From positions 1 through 64,000 of the forward strand of contig JAHDGU010000009.1 of assembly GCA_020627535.1 (NCBI GenBank): a stretch of DNA of 64,000 nucleotides, written 5' to 3'. Made by a program: the position numbers and the translations under genes. The notes under the pieces are model-generated. The model was given only the letters and a program-made list of their open reading frames with translations. It had not been told where the DNA came from and did not search any database. The DNA is from Saprospiraceae bacterium (lineage in GTDB: Bacteria; Bacteroidota; Bacteroidia; Chitinophagales; Saprospiraceae). Positions 47,409 through 58,137 of this stretch are shown here, one piece after another. Within the stretch, counting starts at the first letter, position 1. Each line of letters begins with the position of its first letter.

Positions 47409-48593
47409 ATGCTCAGATACTTACACCCAGATCATGCCTTGATACGAGGTCAGTTTGAGGCAGGTCTCTACATCGGTCTAGACGACCAAGGGGTCATCCG
47501 AGATATTACCAGCACCCTTCCCACACATGATGGTAGTTCTGCGGAAGAGCTCTCTGGGATTTTGATTCCAGGATTTATCAATACGCACTGTCACCTTGAG
47601 CTGAGTCACATGCGTGGAGCCATCCAGACAGGAACTGGACTGATTGATTTCATATTCGGCGTATTGACCGGTAGAGAGTATGACGCAGATCAGATCTCTA
47701 AGGCCATTTCAGAGGCTGATCATGCGATGTACACTTCTGGTATCGATGCCGTGGGTGATATCTGTAATACTCTGCACACATCAGAGTGCAAGGCTCGATC
47801 TCAAATGCGATATGCCAACTTTGTCGAGGCCTATGACCTCTGGCAAGGACCAGAGACGAGTCCACTTTTTCTGTCACACCTTGAGACCTATGCCTCGATA
47901 GCGATCAAAGAAAAAGACTATAAGATTTTGGTGCCTCATGCGCCATATAGTGTAAGTCAAGCGGCTTTCGCCAAAATTCTAGACGTTAACCAAAGCAAGG
48001 CGGGCACTATCAGTATTCACAATCAAGAGACGCCGGATGAGAATCGATTCTTCGAGTATGGAGATGGACGATTTGTAGAGTTTTTTGAGAAAATCAATCT
48101 GACAACAAGGGGCAAGCCCACCGGTGAAGGAAATGCCATGGACTATGCCCTCAGTCAGATGGACAGCCAAAGACCTACACTTTTTGTACACAACACGATG
48201 AGTACCCATGCGGATGTAGAGAGAGCCCTTGCACAAAATCCTCAGAGCTACTGGGTCACTTGTCCCAATGCCAATCTCTACATCGAGAACCGTCTGCCGG
48301 AATATCGGACCTTACTCTCAGCCGGAGCTACGATGACTATCGGTACTGACAGCCTGAGTTCAAACTGGCAACTGGACATCCTCCAGGAGATCAAGACCAT
48401 ACAGAGATACAATAGTTATCTATCTACCGAGCAGCTCCTTACTTGGGCAACTTCAAATGGTGCTAAGGCGCTTGGCTTTGATGATCTTGGAGAGATCGCT
48501 ATGGGTAAGTCACCAGGTCTGCTTTTGCTAGATTATCGCCCTCAAAACGAGAAGCTTCTAGAAGCTCATCATACGGTGCGCCGAATTTTTTGA
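47409..48593 (+). CDS. Amidohydrolase (SsnA/MtaD-like deaminase family)
   Basis: A 394-residue metal-dependent hydrolase. Metal ligands are visible: T-H-C-H-L-E-L-S-H (H-x-H, near residue 59), I-S-I-H-N-Q-E-T near 200, F-V-H-N-T near 258 and G-T-D-S-L-S-S-N (Asp, near 313). The H-x-x-E set is that of purine-type deaminases such as S-adenosylhomocysteine, methylthioadenosine or aminofutalosine deaminases; which one cannot be told. It overlaps the convergent GSCFA gene by 25 bp. A canonical T-tract hairpin motif is inside (47963-47976). Confidence 0.88.
   Translation: MLRYLHPDHALIRGQFEAGLYIGLDDQGVIRDITSTLPTHDGSSAEELSGILIPGFINTHCHLELSHMRGAIQTGTGLIDFIFGVLTGREYDADQISKAISEADHAMYTSGIDAVGDICNTLHTSECKARSQMRYANFVEAYDLWQGPETSPLFLSHLETYASIAIKEKDYKILVPHAPYSVSQAAFAKILDVNQSKAGTISIHNQETPDENRFFEYGDGRFVEFFEKINLTTRGKPTGEGNAMDYALSQMDSQRPTLFVHNTMSTHADVERALAQNPQSYWVTCPNANLYIENRLPEYRTLLSAGATMTIGTDSLSSNWQLDILQEIKTIQRYNSYLSTEQLLTWATSNGAKALGFDDLGEIAMGKSPGLLLLDYRPQNEKLLEAHHTVRRIF
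47963..47976 (-). repeat. T-tract mini-hairpin motif (canonical 14-mer)
   Basis: Exact TTTTGGCGAAAGCC on the minus strand, antisense to the amidohydrolase gene (A-F-A-K-I). Confidence 0.65.
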
Positions 48594-49588
48594 GAGACAG
48601 AGCTTAGTGACTGGGACAGATCAAGATGAGGATGCTCATCTTGGACACGAGAGATCCTGGAGATGAGCCCTTGCCAGAAGTCCTGTGTAGCTTGACTTTC
48701 TGGATGAATCGGTCGATGTGCCATGTCTCTGGCGATAGCAATCAGAGCTTCAAGCTGTCTCATGGCAGAGCTATCCATCTGTGTCTGACAGTACTTGTCA
48801 AATATGTAGTTGACGGCTTTATCACTGGGATGGATCATGTCTGCTGCATACCAGCGATAGTCTCGAAGCTCATCCATCATGATCTCGTAGGCTGGGAAGT
48901 AGTGATGTTTTGATTCGCAGAGGATATGAGTAGCCTCGATGAGACGTGACTTGGACCTTTGATTCTGTATGTGGCCATCTTTGAGATGCCTCACTGGGCT
49001 TACGGTGAAGTAGCATCTGAGACCGGGGTTGATCGATAGAATGCGTCGCAAGATATCTCTCCACTGAGCGACGATTTCATCTACACCGAGTAGTCGCTTG
49101 TGAAATTCGGTCGAAGCCCTACGGTGACAGTTGGCTACTGTGATCTTGGCTTCTTTGTGTTGATAGACCCACGCGGTTCCCCAAGTTACAAGTAGTACTT
49201 GCGAGTTTGAGATCTCCGAGCGCAATGTCTTCAGGGCGGAGTTCATTTTGGCGACAGCCAGCTCTGCTACAGGATCAGCAAATCGCTTCCCAAACATCCA
49301 ATGAGCGTAGAGGTCTCCGTCATAGATGAGATCAGTCTGCGTGACTTCTGTGTCATCTAAGCATAGCTCAAGTACACGTGCAAGACCGATCGGGTGAAAG
49401 TGCACTCCGCAAGGATTGGCACAGCCTGGCCAAGAGAGATCTTCCAGCCTACCACCAATGCGATCAGCGAAGCAACTGCCCAAGGCCAGAATGCGATCCG
49501 TCTCCTGTATCAACTGATCAGGTGTGTCAATCTGGGTATTGGTCAATATCTTGTGTGTCATATCTCTCGCAGCCTTACGAATATCCAT
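48569..49588 (-). CDS. GSCFA-domain protein
   Basis: A 339-residue protein with the name-giving motif L-G-S-C-F-A-D-R-I-G (near residue 36), then N-P-C-G-V-H-F-H-P-I-G, W-G-T-A-W-V-Y, the catalytic-looking S-P-V-R-H-L-K-D-G and the end block Y-F-P-A-Y-E-I-M-M-D-E-L-R-D-Y-R-W-Y-A-D-M-I-H-P-S (shown split over its conserved D and H). The fold is SGNH-hydrolase-like; the substrate is unknown. A second Met nine codons later (49561) is a possible start. Divergent from the 49602 gene with a very short gap. Confidence 0.9.
   Translation of the reverse strand: MDIRKAARDMTHKILTNTQIDTPDQLIQETDRILALGSCFADRIGGRLEDLSWPGCANPCGVHFHPIGLARVLELCLDDTEVTQTDLIYDGDLYAHWMFGKRFADPVAELAVAKMNSALKTLRSEISNSQVLLVTWGTAWVYQHKEAKITVANCHRRASTEFHKRLLGVDEIVAQWRDILRRILSINPGLRCYFTVSPVRHLKDGHIQNQRSKSRLIEATHILCESKHHYFPAYEIMMDELRDYRWYAADMIHPSDKAVNYIFDKYCQTQMDSSAMRQLEALIAIARDMAHRPIHPESQATQDFWQGLISRISRVQDEHPHLDLSQSLSSVSQKIRRTV
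49246..49259 (+). repeat. T-tract mini-hairpin motif (GACA loop)
   Basis: TTTT-GGC-GACA-GCC on the plus strand, antisense to the GSCFA gene. Confidence 0.55.
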
Positions 49589-49601: not shown

Positions 49602-50924
49602 GTGAGCTGGTTTGCAGATATTCTAGGTAATTGGAAAAATGAGAAGACCGATGACTACTTGTCCTTTGGGAGATTTAGTGATGCGTACAAGGCTCAGGAC
49701 AACTACCAAGCCTGGGATGGTGCTATGGAGGCATTTGAAGATGGGCAGATTCTAGAGGCCTATCGTCTCTTCTTCGATTATCTCAAAAATGCTCAAGACA
49801 ATCTGAGTTATCAACAAGAGCAAGAAGAGCTCAAGTTCTGTCTCTTCCAAGGCTCTAAGCAGATCGTAGGTCATATTGGCCAGGACATGGTCTGGGCAGA
49901 AGCTAAGATTGCACGGACTCAAAGTCTAGAGATGGGTTTTCTCCGCTTACTCGTCGAAAAAAACTACGGCCTCAAGTACTCCAGATTTGCGCTAGATGGA
50001 GAGGACAATATCACGATTGTCTTTGATTCGCATAGGATTGACTGTTCACCCTTCAAGCTCTACTTTGCGCTTAAGGAGCTGTCAATCACAGCTGACAAAC
50101 TCGATGACATCATGATCGATGAGTGGCGAGATGATCTGGAGCAGATCAATACAGGACATGTCACCAGCCTCGATCCTGCCGTGGTCCAAAACAAGATCAC
50201 ATTTTTGCGACAGCAACTGCAAAAGGCAATAGAGTACTTCCAGGAGCATAGTGATGATCCGAGTCGCAGTCCTGGCGGGCTGAGCTACTATCTGCTGAGT
50301 ACTTGTTATCGGATAGATTATCTCACGCAGCCTGAGGCCTATGTCCTCGAGGCGATTGAGCGTATACAAAGGATGTATTTTTCGCGCTCGGATCTCAGCA
50401 TGGATCAAAAGAATCATCAGATCATCAAGGAATTTGAGCTGATACTAGAGCGTGATGATGAGACGATGGCGCGAGAGTTTTATCAGAGTGTCTTCACATT
50501 TGGGATCACCAAGCCTGCTGGTCAGTTTGAGCTAGAGCAGCTCTTTCACCAAGACTGGAACAATCTCATCTGGTACCTCAACCATGACCTTGAGGAGGTG
50601 TCGCTTGCCACAGCTGAGTATATCGTGGGCTATTCACTCTTCAATTTTGCTCCGCCCCAGGTTATCAGAGAGCTCTTACACCTGTTTTACGAGATCGTCC
50701 ACAATGTGTACTTCAATGCCATAGGATATGATGATCACTACTACAGTGAGACTTCTAGGGAATTTAAGGAGCGAGCAATACGTAAATCTATTAATGGTAT
50801 CGAGCGACGCTACAAGGAGCAACTAGAAGAACTCGATATTGATGTTAAGTCGCTGGATTATACAACGCTGCCACGATTTGCTGCGACCTACCTGGAGATG
50901 ATCAATAAACTGAAGATCGACTGA
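49602..50924 (+). CDS. Uncharacterised cytosolic protein paired with a trypsin-like protease
   Basis: A 440-residue protein with no signal peptide. The open frame reaches back to 49524, but this would overlap the divergent GSCFA gene and encode an odd hydrophobic end; the GTG at 49602 (M-S-W-F-A-D-I-L-G) is preferred. Residues 30-180 (D-N-Y-Q-A-W-D-G-A-M, I-L-E-A-Y-R-L-F-F-D-Y-L, G-L-K-Y-S-R-F-A-L-D) have the look of a YbjN/type III chaperone-like alpha-beta domain; the rest is mostly helical. No named family is certain. Its stop and the protease start share one base (TGATG), so the two proteins are made together. Confidence 0.75.
   Translation: MSWFADILGNWKNEKTDDYLSFGRFSDAYKAQDNYQAWDGAMEAFEDGQILEAYRLFFDYLKNAQDNLSYQQEQEELKFCLFQGSKQIVGHIGQDMVWAEAKIARTQSLEMGFLRLLVEKNYGLKYSRFALDGEDNITIVFDSHRIDCSPFKLYFALKELSITADKLDDIMIDEWRDDLEQINTGHVTSLDPAVVQNKITFLRQQLQKAIEYFQEHSDDPSRSPGGLSYYLLSTCYRIDYLTQPEAYVLEAIERIQRMYFSRSDLSMDQKNHQIIKEFELILERDDETMAREFYQSVFTFGITKPAGQFELEQLFHQDWNNLIWYLNHDLEEVSLATAEYIVGYSLFNFAPPQVIRELLHLFYEIVHNVYFNAIGYDDHYYSETSREFKERAIRKSINGIERRYKEQLEELDIDVKSLDYTTLPRFAATYLEMINKLKID
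50202..50215 (+). repeat. T-tract mini-hairpin motif (TGC stem, GACA loop)
   Basis: TTTT-TGC-GACA-GCA on the plus strand, sense to the 49602 gene. Confidence 0.45.
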
Positions 50925-52021
50925 TGGAGTGGACCGAGATCATCGACAGGCTCAAGGACAGTGTTGTCCAGATTGCTACGCCATACAGTACTGGCACTGG
51001 TTTTTATCTGGAAGATCTAGATGTCATCGTGACCAATGAGCACGTAGTACGCAATAACAAGCAGGTCGTGGTCCTAGGAAGAGGATTTGACAAGCAACTA
51101 TGCCGAGTGATATTCTTGGATGATCATCATGATCTAGCCCTTTTGGCACCGCCGAGCGCTCATCGGATGATAGGCCTGTCGGCCAAAAGCAATGTGGCTG
51201 CACATGTCGGAGATGCTGTCTTGGCCGTTGGTCATCCATTTGGCTATGACTTCGCAGCTACACAAGGCATCGTATCCAATCTCGATCACCGCGAGAAAGA
51301 TCTCTCCTATATACAACATGATGCCGCGCTCAACCCTGGAAATAGTGGTGGACCACTCGTGAGCAAAAGTGGACACTTGCTAGGTGTCAACACTTTTATC
51401 CTTCAAGAAGGGCAGAGCCTCGGATATAGTTTGCCAAGTAGTTACATTCAAAAACTGGTAGACGATTGTGATCCAGATAGACTGCAATCCGAGACTGCGA
51501 TCTTGTGCTCTGGTTGTAGTGGTCTCATCTACGCTGAAGATATGGATCCGGACGAAAGCTACTGCCCCAACTGTGGCAAGTATGCTGTGCTCCCAAGGTC
51601 ACTGAGCGGCTACGAGGCGACAGGCGTCAAAAAGACCCTAGAAGAGATGATCATGCAACTCGGGTACCATGTGGAGCTCTCTCGCAAAGGACCCAATCAG
51701 TGGGAGATCAATAAAGGAAGCGCGCATATTGATATCAGCTATCATCAAGGTACGGGGCTGATCACATGCGATGCTCTGCTTTGTCAGCTTCCATCTGGCT
51801 CGAGTGAAGCGCTATACAGGTATGTCCTGCAAGAGAACTATAAGCCCAATGGATTGTCTTTCAGCGTGCGAGGTCAAGATGTCGTGCTCAGCCTACTGAT
51901 TTACGACCAGTACCTAGATATCGATACCGGAATGACCTTGATGAAGCGAATGTTTCAGGCTGCAGACGACTATGATGATCAGCTTATCAATGACTTTGGA
52001 GCACAGCCGAGAACCAGTTAG
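50924..52021 (+). CDS. Signal-less trypsin-like serine protease with zinc ribbon and YbjN-like tail
   Basis: A 365-residue protein. Residues 1-185 are an HtrA-type protease domain: S-T-G-T-G-F-Y, His in V-T-N-E-H-V-V (near 39), Asp in H-D-L-A-L-L (near 69), Ser in N-P-G-N-S-G-G-P-L (near 144). There is no PDZ domain. A zinc ribbon follows (C-S-G-C at about 195 and C-P-N-C-G near 213). Residues 235-360 resemble a YbjN/type III chaperone-like domain. No signal peptide or membrane anchor is seen, so it should act in the cytosol, which is unusual for this protease group. It is coupled by TGATG to the preceding gene. Confidence 0.85.
   Translation: MEWTEIIDRLKDSVVQIATPYSTGTGFYLEDLDVIVTNEHVVRNNKQVVVLGRGFDKQLCRVIFLDDHHDLALLAPPSAHRMIGLSAKSNVAAHVGDAVLAVGHPFGYDFAATQGIVSNLDHREKDLSYIQHDAALNPGNSGGPLVSKSGHLLGVNTFILQEGQSLGYSLPSSYIQKLVDDCDPDRLQSETAILCSGCSGLIYAEDMDPDESYCPNCGKYAVLPRSLSGYEATGVKKTLEEMIMQLGYHVELSRKGPNQWEINKGSAHIDISYHQGTGLITCDALLCQLPSGSSEALYRYVLQENYKPNGLSFSVRGQDVVLSLLIYDQYLDIDTGMTLMKRMFQAADDYDDQLINDFGAQPRTS
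51173..51188 (-). repeat. T-tract mini-hairpin motif (GGCC stem)
   Basis: Minus strand TTTT-GGCC-GACA-GGCC, a 4 bp stem, antisense in the protease gene. Confidence 0.55.
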
Positions 52022-54447: not shown

Positions 54448-54936
54448 ATGAAGTATAAGATAGAAGTCGACGAGATTTTTGAAACAGAATTGACCGAGGA
54501 GCTACTTGACACTCTCGATATTTCTCCCGCACTAGATGGCTCTGGACTGTATCATATGCTGCTGGACGGGAAGTCGTACATGCTTGAGTTGATAGATAAT
54601 CAATCGGAAGATGGTAAGTATCTCATCTCTGTCAATGGATTTGAGCACTGGGTGGTCGTGACAGATCGATGGAAGCAACTGATCTCTTCGATGGGTCTTG
54701 ACAAGAAGTCAAGTAAGAAGCTCTCAGAACTCAAGTCACCTATGCCTGGAGCGGTCAAGCAAGTGCTCGTCAAGCCAGGAGAGGAAGTAGAAGAAGGAGC
54801 TACGCTCATCGTCATGGAAGCGATGAAGATGGAAAATCTACTTAAGTGCCCTTCTGCCCAGACGATCAAGTCAGTCGAGGTCAAGCCAGGACAAGTCGTA
54901 GAGAAAGGTGCTTTGCTGATTAGGTTTGGAGCCTAG
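54448..54936 (+). CDS. Biotinyl/lipoyl carrier protein (carboxylase BCCP-like)
   Basis: A 162-residue protein whose last 75 residues are a biotin-attachment domain with V-M-E-A-M-K-M-E-N (biotinylated Lys near residue 132) and P-M-P-G-A-V-K-Q-V-L-V-K-P-G. The N-terminal half matches the flanking domain of small biotin carriers of acyl-CoA carboxylases in Bacteroidota. It should carry carboxybiotin for a propionyl- or acetyl-CoA carboxylase, or a decarboxylase. The carboxylase partner genes are not adjacent. It starts 7 bp behind the atp-type membrane gene and shares a CTAG double stop with porW/sprE. Confidence 0.9.
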   Translation: MKYKIEVDEIFETELTEELLDTLDISPALDGSGLYHMLLDGKSYMLELIDNQSEDGKYLISVNGFEHWVVVTDRWKQLISSMGLDKKSSKKLSELKSPMPGAVKQVLVKPGEEVEEGATLIVMEAMKMENLLKCPSAQTIKSVEVKPGQVVEKGALLIRFGA

Positions 54937-57900
54937 TTGTCCTTGTAGTTCTCTTCGAAAAACTCTCTATAGTTTGCTACAGTCTTAGATCTGATGATCT
55001 CGCGCCAGTTGGATTGATTCACAGCGAAGATCTCATAGTCTGTGCCTTCCGGCAAAAAGCGCTGTGTCTTTCTCTGTACGCCATCGTAGTACTTCAACGC
55101 TTCTCCCTTATTCTTGAACCGACGTACTAGGATGACCGGAGTATCCGCAGTCGTATTGAGCGAGATGTGCGATAGTCTCAGGCGATCTGTCTTGTGAAAT
55201 TCGCCGTTGTAGTCACTCATCTTGATCTTGGCATCGCTGAGACTGACGACATCGGTGTTGTAGAGTACCACGATGATGAAGTGTAGCTTATCGTCCTCAA
55301 TCTTGAAGTTGAGTGACTCATTTTCAGTGCCAATTCCACCACCCAGCTCATCACGGCCTCCGAGAAGTCGGATGATCTCTCTGGCACGAACTTGCTCATC
55401 GGTATCTGGATATTTTTTGACAAACTTTTGGAGGGCCTTAATGTACTCATCCACCCCATCAGATTGACCGACACACATCGCACCGAGAAGATCAAATTTT
55501 GCCATGAGCTCATGGTCTGTGCCCCAGTCATTCTGTGCTTGGAGGATGCGCTGATTCGTTTCTTCGCAGTTGCCGCCAGTAAAGATGGCGTAGGTTTCAC
55601 GATAGTATCGATCAAGTGCTTGCCGCTCTTGGAGTAGCTTCTGGGCGTAGTCAGGATCAGACAGCAACTTGGCATACTCAGATTCTGGATAGTTTTCGAT
55701 GATGAGTTGACGATACTTCTCCGCTTGAGATTGATTGCCTAGATCCTCGTGGGATAGATAGAGATAGAACCAGGCATCTAGTCTGTGCTTTGTGTTGGGG
55801 AATCTATCGAGAAGCAGCTCAAGGCTCTCCACAGATTTGCCGTAGTTGGACAGTTTGCTACGATACAGCTTACCCAATTCCATCATGGCAGTCATGATAT
55901 CATCTTCTGCCTTGGCGCGAGATTCGTTATCTGTCGGCACGTTGGTGAGGATCCTGCTGATATCTGCGTCACTGAGTATCACCTCATCTGCTCCAGAGTC
56001 TTCAATGGCTTCTGCCGCATTGGCACGTAGATCATTTCGACGCCAGTCGTCCATCAGCTGACGATCGCCCCAGGTTTTGTCAAAGTTTCTGGACTGTTTT
56101 CTGACTTCTTTGTCATCATAGGCCCAGAAGCTACTCTCTCTGCCTGTAGTCCTGGCAGCAATAGCAGCTCTTGCATTTTTCTCGGCTTTCTCAGCTTCTG
56201 CCATTCTTGCCCGTGCATCAGCTTCTTTTCGACTCTTCTTTTGCAATTCCCGTACGAAGTCTTCTTGTTCTTCTGGAGTCAGATTGCCAAGTGCGAGGAG
56301 GCTATCTTGAAGCTCTATGGTAGCCAAATGTCTGACGATATCTTGTAGGTTATCCACCATATTCTGGACCTCTGGGTACCTGATATCGTTCTTGTTTAGA
56401 TTGTTGAGCGCGCCATCATAGTTTGCCTTGGCATCGACATAGGCCTCATCTTCAAAGTTGAGGATGGCAAGTAGATAGTGAGACTCGCCGAGCTGTGGTG
56501 CATTGCTGCCACCTGTTTCTACAGCAAGCTTGAGTTGCTCTATGGCGAGATCGCGCTGCCCTTGGTCCAAGTAGATCCGCGCCATAGTAAAGTGGATCTG
56601 GTCTGCGTAGGTCTTGTTTTTTTCATCTTTGAGCATCTTCTCAAGCTCCTTGAGTGTTTCTGCAGCATTTCGCTGCCCACTTGCGCTAGCATTATTCAGG
56701 AGATTGAGCTGAGCATTGAAGCTCATCTCATAGTCTGGTTTTGCCTTGAGGACCATTTCAAAGGCATCGGCTGCCTGACGGCGATTCCCGAGCTGCGATT
56801 GAATCTGCCCGAGAATAAATGCTAGTCGGGCTCGCTGTAGTCTCACTTTGGTCAGATCAATACTCTTTTCGAGAGCAGGGATGGCTTTTTCCCATTGTTT
56901 TTGCTGTATGGCCAGATCCGCGCGAGCAATCTGGACCTCGGTCAGTACATCTTCATATGTACGAGGGTCAGATTCTATCTTATTGAGGAGATACTCGGCG
57001 TTGCTATATTTCTGGCGGTCTATGTATGTGCGTGCCAGCCAGAGCTGACCTTCTGGATATGCTTGTTTGTGTCCGAAGATCCCTTCACCGGTTTTATCTT
57101 GATTGTACTCTTTCTTGGAATTGAGACCTGATGTCATTTCTTCTTTTTTGGCCTCAGCCTCGTCCTGAGCTTCCTGCTTTCTTTCTTTTCGAGTTTCGCT
57201 ATTGCTAGATTTTGACTCGTTCTTATCAGCTGGCTGCTCCTTGGGCATCTCGACTTCTGGCTCGGTGGTGACCACCGAGTCTTCTTCCTTTTCAATTGAA
57301 CTTGGGCGTTCACTTGCTGGTCTTGGGCGAGAAGATGCTGGACGCTTTTTCGTGCCTTTTTTACTGCTGCTTGAGCCAGGTCTTTTCTTGGATCCGGGTC
57401 TGGTTTTCGACGTTCTAGATTTGGATGATCTAGTTTTGGAGCTGCTCTCTTTTGTTTTTTTCTCTTTGGACTCAGGTCGCTTTTTGGTTTTCGCAGGTCT
57501 TTTTTTGCTAGAGCTTGCGCTTGATGACCTCTTTTTGGTCTTACCTGACGCACTTTTAGCTCGCTTCTTGGCGGAAGATTTTCTGACCCGGTTCCTCGGG
57601 CTATCGGGATCAAACTCCTCTTGATAGTACTCTAGCGTGGCTTGAGCTGACTCATAGTCTTGCTTGAGATACTGAGCCTTGCCCATCAGGACATAACAGT
57701 CTTGCACCCAGTCTGCTCCTGGATGTATCTTGCTGACTGTGGCGACTTTCTCGATTGCGACATCCATGTCCTTTCTGACGGCATCAGCATTGTCCACAGC
57801 GCGATATGGATAGATATCGAGCAACTGATTGTAATTATCTTGATGCTGAGTCTCTAGATTGAGCACTGCCTCGGTGTAGAGGACATCAGCATTGAAATAG

Positions 57901-58034
57901 CCATTAAACCTGGCGGTCTGATTATGATAAAACTTACCAAAGCCAGTCAGATCGTCTTTGCGCTTCTGTGCGACGCATCCACTGATGCTCCAGATGACTC
58001 CGACGAGCAATGTAAGTTGAAGGAATTTCTTCAT
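54933..58034 (-). CDS. porW: PorW/SprE-type T9SS periplasmic lipoprotein
   Basis: A 1033-residue protein. The ATG at 58034 gives a lipoprotein signal with lipobox I-S-G-C; an upstream GTG/ATG extension is rejected. The start of the mature part, F-Y-H-N-Q-T-A-R-F-N-G-Y-F-N-A, is the PorW/SprE signature. TPR-like helical repeats follow, interrupted by a very Lys/Ser/Arg-rich low-complexity stretch encoded at about 57160-57610 and then by a long helical region. Several heptad-like stretches (R-K-E-A-D-A-R-A-R-M-A-E-A-E-K) suggest coiled coil. The protein links the T9SS translocon to the PorK/N ring in Porphyromonas and Flavobacterium. Convergent with the biotinyl carrier gene. Confidence 0.9.
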   Translation of the reverse strand: MKKFLQLTLLVGVIWSISGCVAQKRKDDLTGFGKFYHNQTARFNGYFNADVLYTEAVLNLETQHQDNYNQLLDIYPYRAVDNADAVRKDMDVAIEKVATVSKIHPGADWVQDCYVLMGKAQYLKQDYESAQATLEYYQEEFDPDSPRNRVRKSSAKKRAKSASGKTKKRSSSASSSKKRPAKTKKRPESKEKKTKESSSKTRSSKSRTSKTRPGSKKRPGSSSSKKGTKKRPASSRPRPASERPSSIEKEEDSVVTTEPEVEMPKEQPADKNESKSSNSETRKERKQEAQDEAEAKKEEMTSGLNSKKEYNQDKTGEGIFGHKQAYPEGQLWLARTYIDRQKYSNAEYLLNKIESDPRTYEDVLTEVQIARADLAIQQKQWEKAIPALEKSIDLTKVRLQRARLAFILGQIQSQLGNRRQAADAFEMVLKAKPDYEMSFNAQLNLLNNASASGQRNAAETLKELEKMLKDEKNKTYADQIHFTMARIYLDQGQRDLAIEQLKLAVETGGSNAPQLGESHYLLAILNFEDEAYVDAKANYDGALNNLNKNDIRYPEVQNMVDNLQDIVRHLATIELQDSLLALGNLTPEEQEDFVRELQKKSRKEADARARMAEAEKAEKNARAAIAARTTGRESSFWAYDDKEVRKQSRNFDKTWGDRQLMDDWRRNDLRANAAEAIEDSGADEVILSDADISRILTNVPTDNESRAKAEDDIMTAMMELGKLYRSKLSNYGKSVESLELLLDRFPNTKHRLDAWFYLYLSHEDLGNQSQAEKYRQLIIENYPESEYAKLLSDPDYAQKLLQERQALDRYYRETYAIFTGGNCEETNQRILQAQNDWGTDHELMAKFDLLGAMCVGQSDGVDEYIKALQKFVKKYPDTDEQVRAREIIRLLGGRDELGGGIGTENESLNFKIEDDKLHFIIVVLYNTDVVSLSDAKIKMSDYNGEFHKTDRLRLSHISLNTTADTPVILVRRFKNKGEALKYYDGVQRKTQRFLPEGTDYEIFAVNQSNWREIIRSKTVANYREFFEENYKDN
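55044..55058 (-). repeat. T-tract mini-hairpin motif (GCC stem, GGAA loop)
   Basis: Minus strand TTTTT-GCC-GGAA-GGC, sense in porW/sprE. Confidence 0.55.
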
Positions 58035-58051
58035 GATGATTCTTGAATAGT

Positions 58052-58075
58052 CCAAGCGTTTTTCCCTGCGCTTGG
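58052..58075 (-). promoter_or_regulatory. Leader hairpin of porW/sprE
   Basis: CCAAGCG (58052-58058) pairs with CGCTTGG (58069-58075), a perfect 7 bp stem with a 10 nt loop, 17 bp upstream of the preferred start codon. It would be in the mRNA leader if transcription starts further out. Confidence 0.35.
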
Positions 58076-58137
58076 GCATACTACATATAACAATATGGTG
58101 TTTACTTTTATTATTTGTGCCATGAACAAAGAACTTG

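What the first reader, a model, noticed from the sequence alone, without database searches (positions are those of the whole stretch)
49602..52021. Coupled pair: unknown cytosolic protein and a signal-less trypsin-like protease with zinc ribbon
The protease keeps His, Asp and Ser of the HtrA-type triad but has no signal peptide, anchor or PDZ domain. It carries a C-x-x-C/C-x-x-C zinc ribbon and a C-terminal domain that looks like the YbjN/type III chaperone fold. The upstream protein seems to contain the same kind of domain and shares one base with the protease start (TGATG). Cytosolic trypsin-fold proteases are unusual; a chaperone-like partner made in equal amounts suggests a regulated proteolysis or toxin-like defence module. 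The function is inference.
Basis: partly seen in the sequence, partly recalled or inferred. Interest (0 to 1): 0.6.

Follow-up and report, generated by a model that had tools for sequence, protein, structure and literature searches.

The report
Cytosolic HtrA-like protease with chaperone partner
Two overlapping genes encode a protein-cutting enzyme that lacks any export signal and a partner protein, both carrying a chaperone-like peptide-binding domain; the pair is inherited together across many Bacteroidota, has no published name that I found, and looks like an undescribed internal protein-processing machine rather than a defence toxin.

Summary
UP (49602-50924) and PR (50924-52021) overlap by one base (TGATG). 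PR is an HtrA-type trypsin domain (His40, Asp70, Ser141), a four-cysteine zinc ribbon and a C-terminal TY-chaperone (YbjN / type III secretion chaperone) domain. It has no PDZ domain or signal peptide; only five codons of open frame precede its ATG. UP carries a homologous TY domain plus a roughly 250-residue helical half. Profile searches, profile-profile comparison, predicted topology and Foldseek all agree on the TY domain. The two genes co-occur almost strictly: 31 of 34 relatives having either have both; across the class, 18 of 18 UP genomes also carry PR. They are usually adjacent, including in distant families with unrelated neighbours. The neighbourhood is housekeeping and UP is absent from phages and plasmids, so a defence or toxin role is not supported. 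In at least four lineages the protease motif decayed or the protease domain is missing, while the TY domain stayed conserved and UP stayed. The conserved core is therefore the TY+UP part. Best explanation: a cytosolic two-subunit chaperone-protease in which TY domains replace PDZ for substrate or partner binding. Activity, complex formation and clients remain inferred.

The parts
49602..50924 (+). UP: 440-aa partner protein, GTG start, TGA stop; belongs to no Pfam or NCBIfam family above cut-off as a whole
   Evidence: ORF; start matches the invariant Met and MSWFADILGNWK N-terminus of the nearest homologue L032; family searches
49743..50141 (+). UP TY-chaperone (YbjN/CesT-like) domain, about residues 48-180, with the xFxLxQGSKxI and ADKxDDxxxxE motifs
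   Evidence: TY-Chap1/CesT_Tir_1/YbjN hits in relatives, hhalign with PR C-terminal domain, HMM above shuffled controls, predicted topology, Foldseek
50169..50915 (+). UP C-terminal all-helical half, residues 190-438, no known family
   Evidence: Low-confidence prediction with about ten helices; no Pfam/PDB hit
50922..50926 (+). TGATG stop-start overlap coupling UP and PR
   Evidence: Sequence; gaps of about -4 to +100 in nearly all other adjacent pairs
50924..52021 (+). PR: 365-aa trypsin-fold protease with zinc ribbon and TY-chaperone domain
50978..51469 (+). PR HtrA-type trypsin domain, residues 19-182; His40 at 51041-51043, Asp70 at 51131-51133, Ser141 at 51344-51346
   Evidence: Trypsin_2 7e-24, degP_htrA_DO 3.1e-38; alignment
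51491..51589 (+). PR zinc ribbon, C195-x2-C198 ... C214-x2-C217
   Evidence: All four Cys invariant in all full-length relatives; weak zinc-ribbon Pfam hits in many members
51596..52006 (+). PR C-terminal TY-chaperone domain, residues 225-361
   Evidence: 2plg HMM hit, YbjN/TY-Chap1 hits, Foldseek to YbjN and T3SS chaperones, topology a-b-b-b-b-a-b-b-a

Best explanation
UP and PR are two subunits of a cytosolic chaperone-protease. [quoted passage not shown] UP carries a homologous TY domain plus a helical domain. Most likely the two TY domains pair with each other, or jointly hold an extended segment of a client, UP's helical half selects the client, and PR cleaves it. Shown by computation: both anatomies, absence of a signal, near-strict co-occurrence and usual adjacency, homology of the two TY domains, and loss of protease features in several lineages that keep the TY domain and UP. 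Inferred: physical complex, active protease here, zinc binding, clients. In lineages with a dead protease the complex would work as a client-binding or sequestering scaffold.
For: Intact triad and HtrA homology. No upstream room for a signal, and no membrane segment. TY fold in both proteins. Co-occurrence: relatives 31 both, 2 UP only, 1 PR only, 26 neither (p 1e-13); class sample 18 of 18 UP genomes with PR, one PR alone (p 3e-30); phylum sample 14 of 14. Adjacency in about 40 genomes from several families with different neighbours. The two gene trees give well-correlated distances (r = 0.88; this includes the shared species tree). Protease motif lost in G007 and G011 (Ser to Gly/Asn) and altered around Ser in G023, G029 and G036, with TY identity nearly unchanged (0.48-0.52 versus 0.52) while the protease domain falls to 0.30-0.43. 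G027 keeps UP followed by a TY-only 136-aa protein at the ancestral site. TY chaperones share a peptide/partner-binding role and dimeric structures (PMC3575483, PMC9503650).
Against: No experiment and no complex prediction. Both folded models are low confidence (pLDDT 42 and 51) because only two sequences were allowed in the alignment. In 13 genomes the genes are on different contigs or apart, so strict co-translation is not required. Repeated loss of the catalytic motif means proteolysis is not the invariant function. No client is suggested by the neighbourhood.
Confidence: 0.5

Rival explanations
1. UP is a dedicated regulator of PR: it binds PR through TY-TY contact and keeps the protease silent or activates it on a signal sensed by the helical half, so the pair is a signalling switch that cuts one or a few specific targets.
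For: Fixed gene pair, UP upstream, homologous domains in both; UP and PR nearly always found together.
Against: If UP only regulated protease activity, it should decay once the protease is dead; it does not (G007, G011, G027). No signal-binding domain found in UP.
Confidence: 0.2
2. The pair is mainly a binding complex (holdase, sequestration or regulatory scaffold, as proposed for YbjN proteins); the trypsin domain is an accessory peptide-binding module that is being lost.
For: At least four separate losses or decays of the protease part with TY domain and UP retained, including one TY-only gene; TY and zinc-ribbon residues are the invariant ones.
Against: 51 of about 56 full-length PRs keep the complete triad and NPGNSGGP motif, so cleavage appears selected in most lineages, the window's included.
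Confidence: 0.2
3. The pair is an anti-phage or toxin-like defence module in which a cytosolic trypsin effector is released by infection.
For: Trypsin domains with co-occurring partner genes are common in predicted bacterial conflict systems (PMC7159879); TY-Chap domains occur in ADP-ribose-centred predicted defence systems (PMC9503650).
Against: Neighbours are housekeeping genes; present in most genomes of the family and mostly single copy; no UP match in phage or plasmid records; PADLOC gives only hits to the shared trypsin fold; no NTPase, nucleotide-signal or pore gene recurs nearby.
Confidence: 0.05
4. An ordinary exported HtrA with a mis-called start.
For: The protease domain is HtrA-like.
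Against: The open frame begins five codons before the ATG, overlapping UP; the same lack of room holds in most distant relatives; no PDZ; a reduced-cysteine zinc ribbon fits the cytosol.
Confidence: 0.03

Closest known systems
HtrA/Deg (S1C) proteases such as DegP, DegQ, DegS, HTRA1/2
   Same: Trypsin core with H40/D70/S141 and GNSGGP motif; best matches in NCBIfam and PDB
   Different: No signal peptide, no PDZ; zinc ribbon plus TY domain instead; scores far below every HtrA equivalog cut-off
YbjN / TY-Chap1 / class I type III secretion chaperones (2plg, AmyR, DR1245, ExsC, SycE)
   Same: C-terminal domain of PR and N-terminal domain of UP share the fold and topology
   Different: The solved members are small free-standing proteins; here the domain is fused to a protease and to a helical domain, and the host genome has no FHIPEP/T3SS export gate
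Trypco1/Trypco2-trypsin pairs of vWA-MoxR conflict systems (PMC7159879)
   Same: Trypsin domain accompanied by a co-occurring partner gene; inactive trypsin domains also occur there
   Different: No NTPase or ternary core nearby, and UP gives no Trypco hit in the Pfam scan
MamE/MamO magnetosome HtrA-like proteins (recalled; MamE/MamO models hit)
   Same: HtrA fold with a degenerate member kept for binding rather than cleavage
   Different: Membrane-anchored with other domains (recalled, not tested)

Membership tests
HtrA/Deg family (S1C) | Trypsin-fold protease domain with His-Asp-Ser triad of HtrA type | tested here: met
HtrA/Deg family (S1C) | One or more C-terminal PDZ domains | tested here: not met
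   No PDZ hit; the C-terminus is zinc ribbon plus TY domain
HtrA/Deg family (S1C) | Export signal or membrane anchor (typical of bacterial members) | tested here: not met
   Open frame leaves five codons upstream; no hydrophobic segment
HtrA/Deg family (S1C) | Trimer-based oligomer | not testable with these tools
   No complex prediction available
TY-chaperone (YbjN / class I T3SS chaperone) superfamily, domain level | a-b-b-b-a-b-b-a type fold | tested here: met
   Predicted secondary structure order in both proteins with one additional strand called; Foldseek
TY-chaperone (YbjN / class I T3SS chaperone) superfamily, domain level | Sequence-profile match | tested here: met
   Weak for the window proteins, consistent across the family; one UP above Pfam cut-off
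TY-chaperone (YbjN / class I T3SS chaperone) superfamily, domain level | Dimerisation and peptide/partner binding | not testable with these tools
   Known for relatives (PMC3575483); not tested for this pair
Type III secretion chaperone (functional) | A type III export apparatus in the host | tested here: not met
   No FHIPEP match in the genome, controls positive
Known anti-phage systems | Match to a PADLOC system beyond the shared protease fold, or defence neighbourhood | tested here: not met
Trypco-trypsin conflict pairs | Trypco1 or Trypco2 partner and MoxR/vWA or STAND core | tested here: not met
   Pfam scan of the UP family and of the window's neighbours shows none; no recurrent neighbour outside the close family

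The most novel reading that the evidence does not exclude
A previously unrecognised cytosolic protein-quality-control or regulated-proteolysis machine of Bacteroidota in which a TY-chaperone heterodimer replaces the PDZ domain of HtrA, ATP-independent and separate from Clp/Lon/FtsH, and in which the protease has been demoted to a non-cleaving scaffold several times.
Probability: 0.35. Interest if true: 0.7.

Novelty: new variant of a known kind. Interest (0 to 1): 0.5.

Why it matters
Cytosolic proteolysis in bacteria is thought to be dominated by ATP-dependent machines, while HtrA-type proteases work outside the cytosol. A conserved, signal-less HtrA-type protease with its own chaperone-domain partner would be a new arrangement, and its natural dead-protease versions give a built-in test of what the complex does without cleavage. 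It also gives a concrete role hypothesis for the poorly understood YbjN/TY-chaperone fold in bacteria that lack type III secretion, and points to a protein family (UP) for which I found no existing family model.

Tried and rejected
Hidden signal peptide or start further upstream: rejected by the open frame. Type III secretion link: rejected, no export gate gene. Mobile/defence module: rejected on neighbourhood and on absence of UP from phages and plasmids; the single full-length PR on a plasmid record is on a 602-kb Bernardetia replicon among housekeeping genes, with no UP next to it. Functional link to PorP/SprF, bactofilin or GSCFA: rejected, those neighbours are shared only within the close family and change completely elsewhere. 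Functional link to phenylacetate genes next to the split copies: judged a lineage-specific rearrangement. Genes next to UP in the split copies (clusters 21, 24, 15): unrelated genes or antisense frames. The genome-contig scan found only two loci, one relevant. Own-genome search for YbjN gave nothing, showing that a single Pfam model misses this divergent domain. Literature searches for such an architecture found nothing specific.

Full report
What is there. The window lies in a 4.09-Mb genome whose nearest relative in a named collection is a Saprospiraceae MAG. UP (49602-50924, 440 aa, GTG start) ends in a TGA that shares its last base with the ATG of PR (50924-52021, 365 aa). The GTG start is supported by the nearest homologue, which begins with the same MSWFADILGNWK.

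PR anatomy. Residues 19-182 are an HtrA-type trypsin domain (Trypsin_2 7e-24; Do family model 3.1e-38 but far below that family's cut-off; best solved relatives HhoA, HTRA1, DegQ). The triad is His40, Asp70, Ser141. Then comes C-x2-C ... C-x2-C, invariant in every full-length relative seen, and a C-terminal domain of about 137 residues. No PDZ domain was found. The reading frame opens only five codons before the ATG, inside the end of UP, and most relatives have equally little room; hydropathy shows no membrane segment. So the protein is very probably cytosolic, on sequence grounds only.

[quoted passage not shown] Four lines agree: an HMM of 31 relatives finds 2plg, a YbjN protein (E 0.012); single relatives match YbjN (7 of 31) and TY-Chap1 (6 of 31); the predicted element order is helix, four strands, helix, two strands, helix; and Foldseek's 50 listed PDB matches are dominated by YbjN proteins and type III secretion chaperones, 2plg first at E 6e-6. 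The model as a whole is poor (pLDDT 42), and only the C-terminal part is usable (roughly 40-71 by ten-residue block).

UP anatomy. Residues about 48-180 show the same element order. TY-Chap1 is hit in 13 of 30 relatives, once above Pfam's cut-off, and the listed Foldseek matches with probability near 1 are type III secretion chaperones, though with E-values of only 0.05 and above. The PR and UP domains are homologous to each other: hhalign E 2.1e-5, and the PR-domain HMM scores 37 of 53 UPs above the best of 1,060 shuffled sequences, in the same region where printed (the window's own UP, at 8.3 bits, lies just below that best shuffle at 8.4). Shared motifs are visible by eye: [FW]-E-[LI]-x-x-G-S in mid-domain and A-D-x-x-D-[DN]-x-[LM] in the last helix. 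The C-terminal half of UP is predicted all-helical and matches nothing known.

Distribution. Among 60 relatives 31 have both, 2 UP only, 1 PR only and 26 neither; two of the three exceptions are fragmented assemblies. Among 395 genomes drawn over the class, all 18 with UP have full-length PR and one has PR alone. Among 395 over the phylum, 14 have both; one further weak hit to the UP profile is a free-standing 153-aa TY-like protein that I did not count as UP. Samples overlap, and genomes are not independent, so the Fisher p-values (1e-13 to 3e-30) overstate certainty, but the pattern recurs in several families. In about 40 genomes the genes are adjacent on one strand, usually overlapping or within 60 bases, with unrelated neighbours in different families. 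In 13 genomes they are apart.

Decay of the protease. Ser141 is replaced in G007 (Gly) and G011 (Asn); in G023, G029 and G036 the residues around Ser, including the oxyanion-hole segment, are changed. In these five the protease domain has 30-43% mean identity to intact members, against 52% among intact ones, while the TY domain keeps 48-52% against 52%. On the UP tree they fall in three places (G007+G029, G011+G036, G023), and G027, where UP is followed by a 136-aa TY-only gene at the ancestral site before the PorP-like gene, is a fourth. So the TY domain and UP are the constant part, and proteolysis is usual but dispensable.

How it most likely works. Relatives of the TY fold are dimeric and bind extended segments of partner proteins (PMC3575483; prediction in PMC9503650). 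The simplest reading is that TY domains of UP and PR pair with each other or share a client, with the helical half of UP adding specificity and PR cutting. That is inference. Evidence that UP is not merely a protease regulator: it survives protease death. Evidence that the protease matters in most lineages: 51 of about 56 full-length PRs keep the whole motif.

What it is not. The neighbours in the window are GCV_T, DUF1015, an amidohydrolase, GSCFA, PorP/SprF, bactofilin and a biotinyl-carrier-like protein. UP has no match in 50,697 phage or 72,556 plasmid records. PADLOC gives only trypsin-fold cross-hits of any strength. No type III export gate gene is in the genome. I therefore set the defence/toxin idea at 5%.

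Comparison with the known. It works like an HtrA protease with a different substrate-binding module, but is not filed as an HtrA member, because two typical features (PDZ, export signal) were tested and not met. At domain level both proteins belong to the TY-chaperone superfamily. Predicted conflict systems do contain trypsin domains with partner genes (PMC7159879), but their other components are absent here. I found no paper describing the pair; only an open-access subset was searchable.

Noticed in passing
48569-49588 (-): The divergent GSCFA gene is listed from an ATG at 49588, only 13 bases from UP's start; an internal Met (MTHKILTN..., about 49561) is a more likely start and leaves about 40 bases for two divergent promoters.
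   Followed up: no
L128, L132, L134, L135 (UP side); L129, L131, L133, L135 (PR side): In a subgroup of the family the pair is split: UP can sit near a PaaD-like MIP18-family gene and/or an enoyl-CoA hydratase gene, and PR near PaaA/PaaB/PaaC-like genes, as if a phenylacetate cluster rearranged through the pair.
   Followed up: partly
L118:6430-6840: TY-only 136-aa gene directly after UP at the position of PR, before the PorP-like gene: the protease and zinc ribbon are missing while the rest is in place. The same genome (G027) has two further UP-PR pairs.
   Followed up: yes
Other genomes, e.g. G097:C87:35346-35732, G215:C9:283101-283502: Free-standing 140-205-aa TY/YbjN-like proteins occur in a number of Bacteroidota, separate from this pair; their role is unknown.
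   Followed up: no
54933-58079 (-): A 1048-aa predicted lipoprotein with a long Lys/Ser/Pro-rich insert and repeat-like helical segments lies at the end of the downstream cluster and recurs in some relatives at the same place; it resembles a type IX secretion/gliding lipoprotein by eye.
   Followed up: no
L155:7995-9074 (Bernardetia plasmid NZ_CP147018.1): A full-length PR relative (40% identical) lies without UP beside it on a 602-kb replicon; whether UP is elsewhere in that genome was not checked.
   Followed up: partly
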